Part shown: one piece after another, positions 8,815-15,234 of the stretch
Numbering within the stretch: the first letter of the stretch is position 1
How the letters are laid out: each line of letters opens with the position of its first letter
Origin: Luteolibacter sp. Y139
GTDB lineage: Bacteria; Verrucomicrobiota; Verrucomicrobiia; Verrucomicrobiales; Akkermansiaceae
Assembly: GCF_038066715.1 (NCBI RefSeq)
Contig: NZ_JBBUKT010000010.1
Span: 62,001-126,000, forward strand
Direction: 5' to 3'
Length of the DNA stretch: 64,000 bases
Program-made: the position numbers and the translations under genes
The notes under the pieces: model-generated
What the model was told of the DNA's origin: nothing
Databases searched by the model: none
What the model saw: the letters and a program-made list of their open reading frames with translations, nothing else

Positions 8815-9183
8815 ATGAAGACCACGACCATTGCCATGCTGCTGGCTGCATTAATCGTTCCCGCCCAAGTGACCTTGGCCGCGCCGAAGGAGCGTGAGGA
8901 TCCGAAGAAGGAGCGTGAAGACCCCAGAAAGGAAGACCCGAAAAAGGAGGAAGAGCGCAAAAAGGCTGAGAAGGCCGAGAAGGAGCGCAAGCGTGATGCC
9001 GTGAAGGATTTCCTGAAGCAGAAGGACGGGAACAAGGACGGCTCGGTCTCCAAAGATGAATACCTGGCTGATGAGTCGGACAAGGAAGCCGCTGGCAAGA
9101 AGTTCGACGAGTTCAACAAGAACGGCGACCGCGCGCTGGCGAAGAGCGAGATCGAGGCGCTGCTCGGGCTGACGGACAAGTAA
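8815..9183 (+). CDS. Secreted EF-hand calcium-binding protein
   Basis: A 122-residue exported protein. Residues 1-23 are a signal peptide ending in LAA. Residues 24-63 are a very charged E/K/D/R run (KEREDPKK repeated, then EERKKAEKAEKERKR). The C-terminal half holds one good EF-hand loop, DGNKDGSVSKDEY, and a second degenerate one around FNKNGDRALAKSEIE. A pair of EF-hands in a periplasmic or secreted protein suggests calcium buffering or calcium-dependent binding, but no partner is visible. It is followed by a strong terminator at 9207, so it is probably a single-gene transcript. The ATG at 8815 starts the signal peptide. Confidence 0.8.
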   Translation: MKTTTIAMLLAALIVPAQVTLAAPKEREDPKKEREDPRKEDPKKEEERKKAEKAEKERKRDAVKDFLKQKDGNKDGSVSKDEYLADESDKEAAGKKFDEFNKNGDRALAKSEIEALLGLTDK

Positions 9184-9206
9184 GCGGCCTTATTACTTTC
9201 GAAATG

Positions 9207-9238
9207 GGAGCCATGGCGATTGCCGTGGCTCCTTTTTT
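9207..9238 (+). terminator. Rho-independent terminator after the EF-hand gene
   Basis: GGAGCCATGGC and GCCGTGGCTCC form an 11-bp stem (one G-T pair) with a GATT loop and a run of six Ts. It lies 24 bp after the EF-hand stop and 17 bp before the 3' end of the convergent jetC-like gene. Confidence 0.9.
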
Positions 9239-9254
9239 GTGTGGTCCGTTGAAC

Positions 9255-12200
9255 CTATGAGAGCGCTTCGATGAGGCGCTTGCGGTCGACGCGGACGCAC
9301 CAGTTGCGGATGCTGGTGACGGTGCCGGATTGATCGTCATAGGCGCGTTCGACCTTGGCCTGCACGACGGTCTGGGCGTGCTGGATCATGGTGGGGAGGC
9401 GGTCTTCGGGGAAGGCCATGACGAGCTGGAGGCCGAAGTTGCGGGCGAGGGCGAGACAGGCGTCGATGCGGTCGCCGGAGAGCTTCGAGAAGGCTTCGTC
9501 CATGACGACGAGGCCGAGGTTGCGGCGATGGTCCTTCTTGCCGAGATCATAGACGCGCTGGAAGGCGGCGAGCATGGCGACGAAGAAGGGTGCCTGGTTT
9601 TCACCACCGCTTTGTTTCTTTGCGCTCTTGTTGAGAGAGATGGCCGAGCCTTCGCCTTTGCCGGCGGGAGTGGCCTGGATGTCCCAGTGGTGATAGTAGC
9701 GGTAGTCGAGCGCCTTCTGGTGGCGCGGGTCTTCGGTGTTTTCGATGGCGAGCATGAGGGCCTGCTTGGCCTTTTCGATGTCTTCCTTGCCGCCGGCGGC
9801 GAAGAGTTCCAGCGAGGGATTGAGGCCCTTGTCGACGAGGGTCCAGATGGCGCTGTGGGTGCGATCGGCGCGCATCGAAAGCTGGTAGCGCATGCCGCCG
9901 ATGACGTGGTCCATGGCCTTGTTCAGCTCGCGCTTGGTGCGCTCGGCTTCGTCGAGCTTCTCCTTCAGCACGTCTAACACCTGGTGTTGCAGGCGGTCTT
10001 CCCACTGCTTCTGGGCGTCTTCGGCTTCGATGCGGTAGCGCTCGAGTTCGTGTTCTTCGAGTTCGCGGCGGCGGGCGTCATAGCGGGCGTTTTCGTCGTC
10101 CGCGGCGTCGAAGAACTCGGCGGTGTCGGGATGCTTCTCGGCGAGGGCATTGCGCTCGAGGTCGCGAGTGTCGCGGGCTTTCTCCGAGCCACGGCGCTGC
10201 ATGTCGGCGAACTCGCGGACGGCATCGATGCGATGCTGCCATTTCGGAAACTGCTCGCGGGCGGATTCGATCTGGGCGTCGATTTCCGCGTCGCGGATGC
10301 CGACGAGCTTTTCGCGGCTGAGGCGGCGTTCGTGAAGGGTGGCTTGCTCTTCTTCCTTGGAAGTGGCGAGGCCATCCAACTGCTCGCGCTCCTGCTGCTC
10401 GAACTTGGAGAGCGAGCCATTCAGGCGGCCGGTGCGTTCGATGACGCCTTGGAAGGTACGGTCGAGCACGCGGAGTTTTTCGACGGTGGCTTCGCGCTCG
10501 GGGGTGGCGAGAAGGCGGATGGTTTCATCGAGGCCTTGGGCTTCCTTCTTCAAGCGAGGCAGGTCGCGGAGACCGGAGGTGCCGGCTGGTGCGTCGGCTT
10601 CATCGAGCTTCCATTGCTTGCCGCGGTGGAGCCATGTCTTCCAGTCGTCGCGGGAGCGGTTGAGGTGGGAGAGTTCCTCGCGGACGCCTTCCAGTTCTTC
10701 TTCGCGCAAGGTGCGGAGGCGGCGCAGGCCTTCCTCGCCGATGGTGAATTCCTTGGATGGCGTGAGGTGAAGGCGTAGCGGTGGGTCCTTGAGCCAACCG
10801 TCCTTCGACAGCGCGCGCGGGTGCTTGTCGAGTTGCTTGGCCTTGTCCACGGCGACGAGGTCGCCGTAGAGGTGATCGAGGAATGCTCTCGCGGCTTCGT
10901 GCGAGGTGTCGAACATGGCGGCGACGCTGCCGGCCTTGGTCTTGGCGGGCTTGCCGAGTTCGGTGGTATTGACGAGTGGTTCGTCGATGTGGCCCAGGCG
11001 CTGGGCTTGATCCCATGCGGCGGTGAAGTCCTCGGCGAGGACGGCGCTGCGGTTTGGTCCGACGAGTGTCTCTAACAGCGGCCACCAGGGTTCGGCATCG
11101 GGCTTTACCTCGATCACGCGGCCGAGGGCTGCGGCTTTTTGGCCGCGCGAGCGCAGGGCATCTAGCAGGGGAGAGGAAAGGTTGCTGCCTTTCATCGCGA
11201 TGTCATCGAGCTCGCGCTTGAGGCGTGATTCGCGGGTTTCCTGTTCCCTGAGCTTTTCCTCGATCGGGCGGAGGCGTTCTTCGCCGTCGCTTTCGAGGAT
11301 GCGGTAGATGCGGGCCATGCGGGAGGCGGCATCGAGGGCGGGGGCTTCGTCCGCGCCTTGCATTTCCTTGATCCAGCCGGCGGCTTGCTCGGGCTCTTCG
11401 AGGCCGAGTTCCTCGGCGTGCTTGAGCCAGTTTTTCCAGTGCTGGGTCTTGTCGTGAAGGAATTGGCGGGCGGTCTTGGCGGCTTCGCGGAGCAGTTCGA
11501 TTTCCTTGCCGACTTCCTCACGGCGGGTGCGGCCTTGGGCGAGGTGGGCGATCTGCGCGTCATTGCCGGCGACGAGGCGCACGGCATCGAGCTGCTGCTG
11601 GAGTTCATTGCGCTCGGCGATGGCGGCTTCGTAGTCGGCGCGCTGCTCTTCGTTCTGGCGGCGCAGTTGATCGAGCTTGGTTTGGCGGGCTTCCAGCACC
11701 TCGCGCTTTTCCTCGTGGATCAAGGCATCGCGCAAGTGGCCGAAGAGGGCGGCCTCGCGCGAGGCGGCGAGGTAGGCGGCGTGCTGGTCGCAGATGCGGA
11801 CGAGGCGCTGATGCTGATCGTGCATCGTATCGAGGCGGTCCTTGGCGCGACGATGGGCATCGACGCTGGCACGGACTGCCTTCACGTCCGGGAGGCCGGG
11901 CTCTAACAGATAGTCGCGGATGAACTTCTCGAAGCTCTCGACCGGCTGGAAGGCCATCGAGTTCGGAAGGGTCTTGTTCATCTGGGTGCGGTCAAAGCCG
12001 AGGTGGCTGCGAGAGGCCATCTCTTCCAGGTAGCTTGCCTGGCGATCCCAGACGTCGCCTTCCAGATCGCGGCGGACGTGGACGCGGAATTCTTCCTCCG
12101 AGAGGAAGGCCATCGCATCGTCTAACAGCTGCGGGGCGAGGAAGTCTTCCTTTTGCAAGCGCTGCGGGATGCAGAACCAGAGCGTGCGTGGCTTGGCGGT

Positions 12201-12575
12201 GGGGCCTTCGTATTCGATGCGTGCGCCCCACGTCTCGCGGCGGGGTTCATCTTCGCCGGAGGCGGCGGGCCATGCGAATTCCAAAGCAGCCAAGGTCACG
12301 CCGCTGGGGCGGAGGAAGCGCTCCTGGCCGTCCTTGCCGACGGTATTGGTATCGCAGAGGCAATAGCCGCGCAGGGTGCGTCCGCTGCCGGCACCGGCGG
12401 CGGCTTTGTTGAAGCGGCTGAGCGATTCACCGAGCATCACGAACTGCAGCAGGTCGAGCAGGGCGCTCTTGCCCGAGCCATTCGCGCCGGTGATCAGGGT
12501 GAGGCCGGAGACGTCGATGAAGTCCCGGTAGCCATACCAATTGATGGCGATGATGCGACTGAGGTGAACACGCAT
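9255..12575 (-). CDS. SMC-like ATPase of the JetC/MksB (Wadjet) type
   Basis: An 1106-residue SMC-like motor. It has an N-terminal Walker A motif (GANGSGKS, residues 30-37), long coiled coils, a central globular hinge-like region (about 490-640, GRVIEVKPDAEPWWPLLETL) and a second coiled coil. At the C-terminus are an ABC signature SGGENQ (about 989) and Walker B LGLVVMDEAF (about 1020). The order JetA-JetB-JetC on one strand, with 1-bp and 8-bp gaps, matches Wadjet/MksBEF condensin-like complexes, in which this subunit hydrolyses ATP and extrudes DNA. In Wadjet a fourth subunit, JetD/MksG, cuts small circular DNA, but no such gene follows; a terminator of the convergent gene lies 17 bp beyond the stop. 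ATG 12575 is chosen because the first beta-strand (HLSRIIAINWYG) starts there. Confidence 0.88.
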   Translation of the reverse strand: MRVHLSRIIAINWYGYRDFIDVSGLTLITGANGSGKSALLDLLQFVMLGESLSRFNKAAAGAGSGRTLRGYCLCDTNTVGKDGQERFLRPSGVTLAALEFAWPAASGEDEPRRETWGARIEYEGPTAKPRTLWFCIPQRLQKEDFLAPQLLDDAMAFLSEEEFRVHVRRDLEGDVWDRQASYLEEMASRSHLGFDRTQMNKTLPNSMAFQPVESFEKFIRDYLLEPGLPDVKAVRASVDAHRRAKDRLDTMHDQHQRLVRICDQHAAYLAASREAALFGHLRDALIHEEKREVLEARQTKLDQLRRQNEEQRADYEAAIAERNELQQQLDAVRLVAGNDAQIAHLAQGRTRREEVGKEIELLREAAKTARQFLHDKTQHWKNWLKHAEELGLEEPEQAAGWIKEMQGADEAPALDAASRMARIYRILESDGEERLRPIEEKLREQETRESRLKRELDDIAMKGSNLSSPLLDALRSRGQKAAALGRVIEVKPDAEPWWPLLETLVGPNRSAVLAEDFTAAWDQAQRLGHIDEPLVNTTELGKPAKTKAGSVAAMFDTSHEAARAFLDHLYGDLVAVDKAKQLDKHPRALSKDGWLKDPPLRLHLTPSKEFTIGEEGLRRLRTLREEELEGVREELSHLNRSRDDWKTWLHRGKQWKLDEADAPAGTSGLRDLPRLKKEAQGLDETIRLLATPEREATVEKLRVLDRTFQGVIERTGRLNGSLSKFEQQEREQLDGLATSKEEEQATLHERRLSREKLVGIRDAEIDAQIESAREQFPKWQHRIDAVREFADMQRRGSEKARDTRDLERNALAEKHPDTAEFFDAADDENARYDARRRELEEHELERYRIEAEDAQKQWEDRLQHQVLDVLKEKLDEAERTKRELNKAMDHVIGGMRYQLSMRADRTHSAIWTLVDKGLNPSLELFAAGGKEDIEKAKQALMLAIENTEDPRHQKALDYRYYHHWDIQATPAGKGEGSAISLNKSAKKQSGGENQAPFFVAMLAAFQRVYDLGKKDHRRNLGLVVMDEAFSKLSGDRIDACLALARNFGLQLVMAFPEDRLPTMIQHAQTVVQAKVERAYDDQSGTVTSIRNWCVRVDRKRLIEALS

Positions 12576-12583
12576 GGCAGGGC

Positions 12584-13216
12584 TCAAGCGGAAGCTTCCG
12601 CGGCGGACTGGGGCTGATAGAGGGCGGCGCGGGCACTCCACGACTCGATGGAGTCGAAGGGAATGGTGCGGGCGAGGCTGGGGAGGATTTCGATCAAGGT
12701 CTCACCGGCGGGTGCATTCGGATCGGGCCGCTGGGTGCGGACGAGGCGGTGGCGCTTCATGCGGGCGAGCATGTTTTCCACGTGAGTCTTCTCGGGTGGC
12801 TCGATGTTTTCGAAGGTGGATTTGAATCGCTGCCACAGGTCATCCACGGTGATGATGACGGATTGCTCGGCGCGGCTGGTGCGGTGGTCATCCCATGCAC
12901 GCCAGAGGACTAACAGGAGGAGCGTTTCGTCCTTCGTGAACTGCGCAAGGAGCAGGCATGCTTCCGGGCGTGGACGTGCTTGGAGGAGGTAGAAGTCGTC
13001 ATCGACGATCAACTCCAGGCCGAGTGGGGCGAGGTAGTCCTTGAGGTGCTCCTGATAGTGATCGCGGGCGAGCAGGAAGAGATCGCGGCCGCTGCCTTCG
13101 TTGCCGAGCAAGGTGCCGCGGCTCAGGAGCTCGGCGATGATCTCGCGCACCTGAGCGCGATCGGTGTCGGGAACGTCCGGCCAGAAGCGCGGCCAGTAGG
13201 GATCGGTATCGCTCAT
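12584..13216 (-). CDS. JetB/MksE-like accessory (kite-type) subunit
   Basis: A 210-residue cytoplasmic protein between the JetA-like and JetC-like genes. It has the layout of DUF4194/MksE winged-helix proteins. A first helical domain (residues 20-65) is followed by a short strand pair (LELIVDDDFYLLQAR) and the conserved LLLLVLWRAWDDH helix after FTKDET. A second winged-helix-like part (KTHVENMLARMKRHRLVR) comes next, and the protein ends in an alanine-rich tail. In MukBEF/MksBEF such subunits dimerise and bind the kleisin. The start at 13216 lies 1 bp after the jetA stop codon and the stop is 8 bp before jetC, so the three are almost certainly co-transcribed and translationally coupled. Family assignment rests mostly on gene order and size. 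Confidence 0.75.
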   Translation of the reverse strand: MSDTDPYWPRFWPDVPDTDRAQVREIIAELLSRGTLLGNEGSGRDLFLLARDHYQEHLKDYLAPLGLELIVDDDFYLLQARPRPEACLLLAQFTKDETLLLLVLWRAWDDHRTSRAEQSVIITVDDLWQRFKSTFENIEPPEKTHVENMLARMKRHRLVRTQRPDPNAPAGETLIEILPSLARTIPFDSIESWSARAALYQPQSAAEASA

Positions 13217-13217
13217 C

Positions 13218-14696
13218 TCAAGCTTGGCGGGTGAGGGTGAATCGTTCGATGGTCCAGTCGGCTTGCTCGTCCATGGGGACGCCATCGGGCGAGAGTCCAT
13301 CGTGTCGGCGCGGGCCATCGGCGGACCAGCGCACCACGCGGCCGTCCGCCATGGTGGCGTGGTCGTAGGCGGCGGTGGCGAGGAGATCGAGGACGTCATC
13401 GATGCTGGCGGACTCGATGGTCTGGGTGCCGACGCTTGCGGCGACCTCGTCTAACAGGCGGGCCACGAGGCGGGCCGCGCGCTGTGGCGTGAGGGCGAGA
13501 CGCTGGCGCTCCTTGAGTGCTTCCAGGGTATCGTCCTCGTCCTCGCGGGGTTCGCCATCGGTGCCGAAGGAGAGATCGGCGGCGGCGCGGACGCGGCGGG
13601 TGCGGGCGAGGGACTCGACGCCGTAGAAGCACTTCATTTCCGTGACCAGCGGGATGAAATCCGGAGGCGTGTCCTTGAAGCCGGAGATCTTGGTTCCTGC
13701 GTGGGCCGCATTGATGGCATCGCAGTAGGCTTTCACGATTTCAGGGCGGCGGCCGCGGAGCTCGGTCTGGTAATTGTAGCGTTGCTGGGAGAGGCGATTG
13801 AAGCCTGCCATGCGGGCGTCGATGGCGTCGGCGACGAGACGGATCGAGGCGAGGCGGCGCTCGAGATCGCGCAGCATCTTCTCGCCGCGCGCATAGGCTT
13901 CATCGGGCTGCCAGCCGTAGTGAGTGGCGAGGCCTTCGGCGAGGCGCTCTTTTACCAAGGGCTGGTCGCGGATGTCGCCGACCTTGGTGCGGGCTACTTG
14001 CAGGCGGGGCAGGAGGCCGTTTCTACGAAGGGCATCGTAGCAAACCATGTGCTGGCCGGTGCCGAACTCCTGATAGAGGAGGCGTAGCGTCTCGGCAGGG
14101 GATTCGCTGGCGCGCTGGCGTTGGTCGAAGATGGAGATGAGTTTCTCGACGCCGTGGAGCTGGATGACGGCGTTCTCCAAGCGCGCGTTCAGGTCGGTGA
14201 CGGTGGCTCGGAGTTCGTCGGTGGTGCGGAAGGCTGGATGCAGCACTTCGGGGCGCTCCAAGGTCTCGCAGACGCCGCGGACGGTGTCGGCGAAGGTGGT
14301 GAGCTCGGCGATCTCTTCTTCCGCCAGCTCGCGGAGGAGTCGGAGCAGGGGACGGAGGCCGGGGGAGACGAGCGCCCAGCGTTCGTGGAGGCCGAGCTGC
14401 TGGTCTTCCAGCCAGCCGGCGTCGCAGAGGCGATTGAAAAGCTGGCCAGCGCGCTGGCGGGCGTCGCGGAGGGAGGCGCCTTCGTCCTCGGCGAGCAGGA
14501 TTTCCGGATGGGAGGCGAGGGTTTCGCGGACGAGCGCGATGGCGTCGGCGTGGGGAATCCGGCCAGCGTCGCCCGCGGTATCGGCGATGCGGTCGGCGCA
14601 ATCGATGTAGATCGCCGCGGACGGGCGGGAAAGCGGCCGGAAGAAGTCCCGGGAGACGGAACCGAGCAGGCGGCGGCTGAGAGGGTCGAGGTCCAT
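13218..14696 (-). CDS. JetA/MksF-like kleisin subunit
   Basis: A 492-residue protein, first gene of the SMC-like operon. The N-terminus (RLLGSVSRDFFRPLSRPSAAIYIDCADRI) and the winged-helix region around residues 85-110 (LFNRLCDAGWLEDQQLGLHERW) resemble JetA/MksF proteins. A long helical middle (ELTTFADTVRGVCETLERPE) and a C-terminal winged-helix-like segment (LTPQRAARLVARLLDEV, then SIDDVLDLLATAAYDHA) follow. In the family this kleisin bridges the two heads of the JetC dimer. An acidic linker near residue 385 (EPREDEDDTLE) separates the parts. The gene starts 178 bp from the divergent DUF6572 gene, and that gap probably contains the operon promoter. The family call is supported by gene order and overall layout rather than one diagnostic motif. 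Confidence 0.78.
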   Translation of the reverse strand: MDLDPLSRRLLGSVSRDFFRPLSRPSAAIYIDCADRIADTAGDAGRIPHADAIALVRETLASHPEILLAEDEGASLRDARQRAGQLFNRLCDAGWLEDQQLGLHERWALVSPGLRPLLRLLRELAEEEIAELTTFADTVRGVCETLERPEVLHPAFRTTDELRATVTDLNARLENAVIQLHGVEKLISIFDQRQRASESPAETLRLLYQEFGTGQHMVCYDALRRNGLLPRLQVARTKVGDIRDQPLVKERLAEGLATHYGWQPDEAYARGEKMLRDLERRLASIRLVADAIDARMAGFNRLSQQRYNYQTELRGRRPEIVKAYCDAINAAHAGTKISGFKDTPPDFIPLVTEMKCFYGVESLARTRRVRAAADLSFGTDGEPREDEDDTLEALKERQRLALTPQRAARLVARLLDEVAASVGTQTIESASIDDVLDLLATAAYDHATMADGRVVRWSADGPRRHDGLSPDGVPMDEQADWTIERFTLTRQA

Positions 14697-14874
14697 CGGA
14701 GGCGGACGGCGACGCTAGTGGATCGGGCCGGGCTGCCAAGCTCCGTTGGACTTCATGGTTCGGAAGCCGGGGTAAGTGATTGACGGGGAGTTTGTTCGGT
14801 GTGATTTGCTGGCGCGGTCTTCGGATGTGGGTGGCATCTTGCACGGAGAGAATCGTCGAGTAGGTTCGCGCCGC

Positions 14875-15234
14875 ATGCCGCTGGACGAACCGGAGACCAT
14901 CGACGCCATCCATATCGACCCGGCCACTGGAGCCTGTGTCCTCACGATCCGCGATGAGTGGGACTGGAGCGACCGGCGAACGCACCTGGAGGCCCTGCTG
15001 AACAAGGTGTGCTTCTATCTCGATTCGATTGAAGCGGGCAAGGTGGTGGTGAGGATGCCGCTTTCCATCGGCCGGGAGCATGTGATCGAAATCGAGGCGC
15101 TTCACCCGCTGCCTGAGTTTGATGGCGATTTCATGGGCGAACTGGAGGCGAGTTGCGCCTTTTGTGAGGTCAAAGTCAGGTATCGACCCGGAGGGCGGCC
15201 CGCCGAAGTGGGAGGATCTCCCACCGTGGCCTGA
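14875..15234 (+). CDS. DUF6572-like small protein
   Basis: A 119-residue soluble protein. The N-terminal half follows the DUF6572 pattern: an acidic start, then ETIDAIHIDPATGACVLTI, a W-W-D turn (DEWDWSD), then a helix with LLNKVCFYLDSIEAGKV. The second half has strands (VVVRMPLSI, HVIEIEAL, CEVKVRY). The function of DUF6572 is unknown; members often occur singly. The last 20 residues (GGRPAEVGGSPTVA) look less protein-like than the neighbouring frame, which may be chance. ATG 14875 is preferred over an earlier in-frame start because the family homology begins there. The gene is followed at 77 bp by a DUF1844 gene. Confidence 0.65.
   Translation: MPLDEPETIDAIHIDPATGACVLTIRDEWDWSDRRTHLEALLNKVCFYLDSIEAGKVVVRMPLSIGREHVIEIEALHPLPEFDGDFMGELEASCAFCEVKVRYRPGGRPAEVGGSPTVA

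What the first reader, a model, noticed from the sequence alone, without database searches (positions are those of the whole stretch)
9255..14696. Wadjet/MksBEF-type operon lacking the JetD nuclease gene
Three abutting genes (1-bp and 8-bp gaps) encode a JetA-like kleisin, a JetB-like subunit and a complete JetC-like SMC ATPase with intact Walker A, signature and Walker B. Established knowledge: in Wadjet the fourth gene (JetD/MksG) cuts circular DNA, and its gene normally lies beside the other three. Here a divergent DUF6572 gene bounds one side and a convergent gene with a strong terminator 17 bp away bounds the other, so no neighbouring JetD exists. Either the complex does chromosome organisation without cleavage, or it borrows another effector.
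Basis: partly seen in the sequence, partly recalled or inferred. Interest (0 to 1): 0.65.

Follow-up and report, generated by a model that had tools for sequence, protein, structure and literature searches.

The report
Plasmid-cutting SMC operon without its nuclease
This bacterium carries an intact three-part DNA-looping machine of a known plasmid-destroying defence system, but the fourth gene, the DNA cutter, has been deleted; related bacteria have lost the same gene many times while keeping the looping machine, which suggests the machine does something useful without the cutter.

Summary
Window 9255-14696 (-) encodes an intact type I Wadjet core: JetA, JetB, JetC with complete ATPase motifs. 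No JetD is adjacent, and none is found in the 7.1-Mb genome (96.7% complete) with PF09983, PF11795 or a family-specific JetD alignment.

The new part is comparative. Three sister species (JetC 93% identical) have jetD at this exact locus, its start overlapping the jetC stop; two are collinear on both flanks. The window genome has therefore suffered a clean ~1.3-kb deletion whose left edge lies in that overlap. Across the order, 15 of 65 JetC-bearing genomes have no full-length jetD anywhere; none has jetD without jetC. The tree needs at least 11 changes. Some losses leave jetD fossils, and several genomes keep jetD unlinked.

JetABC stays constrained without JetD: dN/dS is 0.06-0.10 on the window branch and 0.018-0.11 between sister genomes that both lack it. 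The complex most likely still translocates DNA but cannot cut. Very recent loss with decay to come cannot be excluded for this genome alone.

Nuclease-less Wadjet-group complexes (MukBEF, P. aeruginosa MksBEF) are known, so this is a new member of a known kind, caught soon after the event.

The parts
13218..14696 (-). jetA (kleisin, MksF-like), 492 aa
   Evidence: PF18982 56.5 bits; PADLOC JetA1 E 2.4e-11; 90-94% identical to JetA of three JetD-bearing sister genomes
12584..13216 (-). jetB (KITE, MksE-like), 210 aa
   Evidence: PF13835 DUF4194 79 bits, PF21980 MksE 33.7 bits, PADLOC JetB1 E 7e-16. N-terminal WPxFW motif conserved in operons with and without JetD
9255..12575 (-). jetC (SMC ATPase, MksB-like), 1106 aa, intact Walker A, signature and Walker B
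   Evidence: PADLOC JetC1 423.5 bits over residues 5-1072; invariant motif residues in alignment A2
9252..9260 (-). jetD deletion junction: in sisters jetC ends TCATGA with the jetD start overlapping the stop; here it reads TCATAG, so jetC keeps its C-terminus (LIEALS) with a TAG stop and jetD is gone
   Evidence: Junction sequences of window, G118, G155, G190, G101; collinear flanks in G118 and G190
9206..9238 (+). hairpin plus T-run terminator of the convergent EF-hand-type gene, far side of the junction
   Evidence: Read directly from sequence
8815..9183 (+). small EF-hand-like secreted protein gene; downstream border, also present in G118 and G190 beyond jetD
   Evidence: Weak EF-hand hits; DNA match to L062 11531-11773 and L090 12013-12356
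14875..15234 (+). DUF6572 gene (ORF from 14776), divergent; private insertion in this genome
   Evidence: PF20212 54.9 bits; absent from the collinear loci of G118, G155, G190 and from all other fetched loci

Best explanation
The operon is an ancestral, vertically inherited type I Wadjet locus (jetABCD) that lost only jetD on the window genome's own branch, by a clean deletion of about 1.3 kb with its left edge in the jetC/jetD stop-start overlap. Shown: presence of jetD at the same place in sister species, its absence here, intact JetABC, purifying selection. Inferred: JetABC still assembles as an ATP-driven, loop-extruding dimer of SMC motors, as in solved Wadjet and MukBEF complexes, but no longer cuts the circle it reels in. 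It most likely persists because it has a cleavage-independent role (folding or segregating the chromosome beside the genome's own Smc-ScpA, or holding plasmids down without cutting), as proposed for P. aeruginosa MksBEF.
For: JetABC families. No JetD in the genome by three profiles. jetD at the syntenic locus in G118, G155 and G190, and directly behind jetC in G101; both flanks collinear in G118 and G190. Similar clean losses in other lineages: G195 vs G193, G157 vs G008, G052 vs G143 with a nonsense-bearing stub of jetD's first codons; terminal fossils in G091, G151 and L165. In the order: 50 genomes with both, 15 JetC without a full-length JetD, 0 JetD without JetC (counted); at least 11 changes on the JetC tree, 12 on an overlapping named set. 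Window-branch dN/dS 0.057-0.100 against 0.044-0.056 for the paired sister branches. Sister pairs in which both genomes lack JetD: L163/L168 dN/dS 0.018, dS 0.44, same downstream gene, no JetD in either genome; L172/L175 0.106; L162/L198 0.080. ScpA present in the genome. JetD evolves much faster than JetABC among sisters: 61-66% against 90-94% identity.
Against: For this genome alone the slightly raised dN/dS is also what a very recent loss followed by neutrality would give. No expression or phenotype data. The JetB N-terminal motif, possibly the counterpart of the known JetD-contact region, is unchanged, so no adaptation to life without JetD was seen.
Confidence: 0.6

Rival explanations
1. 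JetABC here is a remnant: jetD was lost very recently and the other three genes are no longer needed but have not yet decayed.
For: Loss lies on a terminal branch; window-branch dN/dS is slightly higher than the sisters' (0.057-0.100 vs 0.044-0.056), as is G195's (0.155 vs 0.077); most losses in the order are on terminal branches.
Against: If neutral since loss, the excess fits only about 3-5% of the branch, so the loss would have to be extremely recent. Pairs that both lack JetD keep intact JetC at dN/dS 0.018-0.106, and the G133/G006 pair stays intact at dN 0.28. All complete JetC genes extracted from the JetD-less genomes have open frames.
Confidence: 0.25
2. A JetD is supplied in trans from an unassembled part of the genome or a plasmid, so the system still cuts plasmids.
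For: Unlinked jetD occurs in relatives: G192 of the same genus (C94 vs C51), G049 (single contig, 2.78 vs 5.29 Mb), G021, G140, G103, G009, G201, G202. The assembly has 31 contigs and is 96.7% complete.
Against: No hit with PF09983, PF11795 or alignment A1 even at E 0.1, although A1 finds unlinked copies in relatives at E below 1e-120.
Confidence: 0.09
3. Another nuclease or effector has replaced JetD and is recruited by JetABC.
For: A DUF6572 gene was inserted next to jetA in this genome only.
Against: DUF6572 is in no other fetched JetD-less locus; neighbours of JetD-less operons differ from one another; no nuclease beside the window operon.
Confidence: 0.05

Closest known systems
Type I Wadjet (JetABCD; MksBEFG in C. 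glutamicum)
   Same: JetA1, JetB1 and JetC1 profile matches, gene order A-B-C, intact ATPase motifs; sister species have jetD at the same locus
   Different: The nuclease JetD/MksG is absent from the locus and from the assembled genome
P. aeruginosa MksBEF, acting in chromosome organisation and segregation
   Same: Kleisin-KITE-SMC set without the nuclease; [quoted passage not shown]
   Different: The loss here is on a terminal branch with JetD-bearing sister species; no function has been tested
MukBEF of E. coli and relatives
   Same: Wadjet-group SMC complex lacking MksG/JetD; PMC7617805 states that several other Wadjet-group members also lack it
   Different: Not in the MukB family by sequence (MukB profile 13.3 bits, below its cut-off of 23); the genome also has the ScpA subunit of Smc-ScpAB

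Membership tests
Wadjet type I (JetABCD) | JetA, JetB and JetC subunits of type I | tested here: met
   PADLOC JetA1, JetB1, JetC1 best hits; Pfam JetA and DUF4194 over cut-off
Wadjet type I (JetABCD) | JetD nuclease (CAP plus Toprim) encoded with the operon | tested here: not met
   No jetD in the window or the genome with PF09983, PF11795, alignment A1
Wadjet type I (JetABCD) | Functional SMC ATPase motifs in JetC | tested here: met
   Walker A, signature and Walker B motifs intact and conserved
Wadjet type I (JetABCD) | Restriction of small circular plasmids by cleavage | not testable with these tools
   Needs a plasmid maintenance or in vitro cleavage assay
Nuclease-less Wadjet-group / MksBEF complexes | Intact kleisin, KITE and SMC genes in one operon, no MksG/JetD | tested here: met
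   MksE profile 33.7 bits over its cut-off of 27
Nuclease-less Wadjet-group / MksBEF complexes | Role in chromosome organisation | not testable with these tools
   No experimental data; only purifying selection in JetD-less pairs
MukBEF | MukB-family SMC protein | tested here: not met
   MukB N-terminal profile 13.3 bits, cut-off 23

The most novel reading that the evidence does not exclude
In Verrucomicrobiota the Wadjet defence complex is being turned, repeatedly and independently (at least 11-12 times), into a stand-alone SMC complex by deletion of its nuclease, with JetABC kept by selection for a cleavage-independent job: a direct, ongoing example of the defence-to-housekeeping step proposed for the origin of MksBEF and MukBEF.
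Probability: 0.4. Interest if true: 0.72.

Novelty: new member of a known kind. Interest (0 to 1): 0.47.

Why it matters
[quoted passage not shown] Closely related species that differ by the presence of jetD at one collinear locus, with fossils of intermediate states in other lineages, give natural with/without pairs to test this. The fast evolution and frequent loss of jetD also suggest that the nuclease is costly or easily dispensable while the motor is not.

Tried and rejected
Assembly or contig-edge artefact: rejected, the locus is internal to a 301-kb contig and both flanks are collinear with JetD-bearing sisters. A JetD too divergent for Pfam: rejected for this genome with a 17-sequence family alignment. 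A replacement effector downstream: inspected neighbours of ten JetD-less operons, nothing shared. DUF6572 as a new partner: private to this genome. Erosion of the JetB N-terminal motif after JetD loss: not seen; WPxFW is kept in operons with and without JetD, so it does not discriminate. Direct sequence match of JetC or JetB to solved structures: none with single sequences; the JetC alignment finds JetC 9qxt at E 3e-11. Plasmid records: only distant relatives, under 60% identity. JetA identity of L163/L168 computed is not usable, because start codons were picked differently.

Full report
What is there. On the minus strand, window 9255-14696 encodes three abutting genes: jetA 13218-14696, jetB 12584-13216 and jetC 9255-12575. 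Pfam and PADLOC place them in the JetA, DUF4194/MksE and JetC families, type I. JetC has complete Walker A, signature and Walker B motifs, conserved across 13 relatives. The window is C10:62001-126000 of a 7.1-Mb, 31-contig genome.

No JetD. PF09983 and PF11795 find nothing in the genome, and neither does an alignment of 17 JetD proteins from related genomes, even at E 0.1. The same alignment scores JetD of the closest same-genus species at E about 1e-160. The assembly is 96.7% complete, so a JetD in a missing piece is unlikely but not excluded.

The loss is recent and clean. In G118, G155 and G190 (JetC 93% identical) and G101 (85%), jetD follows jetC directly, its start codon overlapping the jetC stop (TCATGA; TCGTGA in G190). 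In the window the same place reads TCATAG: jetC ends at the same residue and the convergent EF-hand-type gene follows. DNA alignment to G118 is collinear on both sides; about 1.3 kb lies between the matching blocks there, 86 bp here. G190 is collinear over both flanks as well. The DUF6572 gene upstream of jetA is an insertion private to this genome.

It happens often. Of 190 genomes of the order, 65 have JetC and 50 have a full-length, broken or contig-cut JetD of this family. All 50 are among the 65, leaving 15 JetC genomes without it; two of these (G091, G151) hold only short jetD fossils behind jetC. On a JetC tree of 60 genomes the 13 without JetD need at least 11 changes. An overlapping set from a separate collection of genome contigs gives 12 changes for 16; the two sets share many species and are not additive. 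The root is not inferred, but linked jetD is by far the commonest state and fossils exist, so losses are the natural reading. Independent clean losses can be read at G195 vs G193 and G157 vs G008. At G052 vs G143 the former keeps the first codons of jetD followed by a nonsense codon, then the shared downstream hydrolase gene. G091 keeps only about the last 37 codons of jetD before a related hydrolase gene. In several genomes jetD is intact but unlinked: G192, G049 (2.5 Mb apart on one contig), G021, G140, G103, G009, G201, G202.

Is JetABC still useful? Between the window genome and its sisters JetABC dN/dS is about 0.05-0.07; the window's own branch is 0.057-0.100 against 0.044-0.056 for the paired sister branch. 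If the genes had been neutral since the loss, only about 3-5% of the branch could be neutral, so either constraint continues or the loss is very recent. Other lineages help: in L163/L168 (no JetD in either genome, same gene behind jetC) JetC dN/dS is 0.018 at dS 0.44; L172/L175 give 0.106 and L162/L198 0.080. These are draft genomes or MAGs, and the common loss in each pair is inferred, not proven; the dS estimates are simple Nei-Gojobori counts and near saturation for some pairs. L143/L147 (0.045) must be left out, because both have an unlinked jetD. The window genome has ScpA of Smc-ScpAB, so JetABC would be a second SMC complex.

JetD itself is poorly constrained: 61-66% identical among the three sisters and 56-58% between them and G101, where JetABC is 90-94% identical among the close species; JetD dN/dS is 0.13-0.27 against about 0.05-0.15 for JetABC.

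Mechanism. From the literature, JetABC is thought to reel in DNA as a dimer of SMC motors and to activate JetD when a circle has been fully extruded (PMC10586767). Without JetD the motor should still load and translocate but not cut; this is inference. The same review says that P. [quoted passage not shown] The window operon fits that kind. What is added here is that the loss can be seen between close relatives, is recurrent in this order, and leaves fossils.

Verdict. Observation confirmed. New member of a known kind; moderate interest, higher if the cleavage-independent role is shown.

Noticed in passing
L102 and L103 (G049), L091 and L114 (G192), L123 and L128 (G140), G021, G009, G103, G201, G202: jetD intact but far from jetABC (2.5 Mb apart in G049, one contig): split Wadjet systems, possibly acting in trans. 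Neighbours of the unlinked jetD differ between lineages.
   Followed up: partly
window 14776-15234: DUF6572 gene inserted between jetA and a DUF1844 gene in this genome only; not in any other locus fetched.
   Followed up: partly
L131 7001-10318: A record titled Nitrosospira sp. Nsp11 (Pseudomonadota) carries a JetABCD operon with JetC 74% identical to the window's and nested in the Luteolibacter/Haloferula clade: mislabelled genome, contamination or transfer.
   Followed up: no
L061 5324-6568, L062 10225-11508, L090 10696-11931: JetD diverges far faster than JetABC between sister species (61-66% vs 90-94% identity).
   Followed up: partly
L200 8794-10010, L077 4059-5229, L119 4854-6054, L191 7381-7719: jetD reading frames that look broken (frameshift or early stop) behind intact jetC: possible losses in progress, or sequencing errors in draft genomes.
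   Followed up: no
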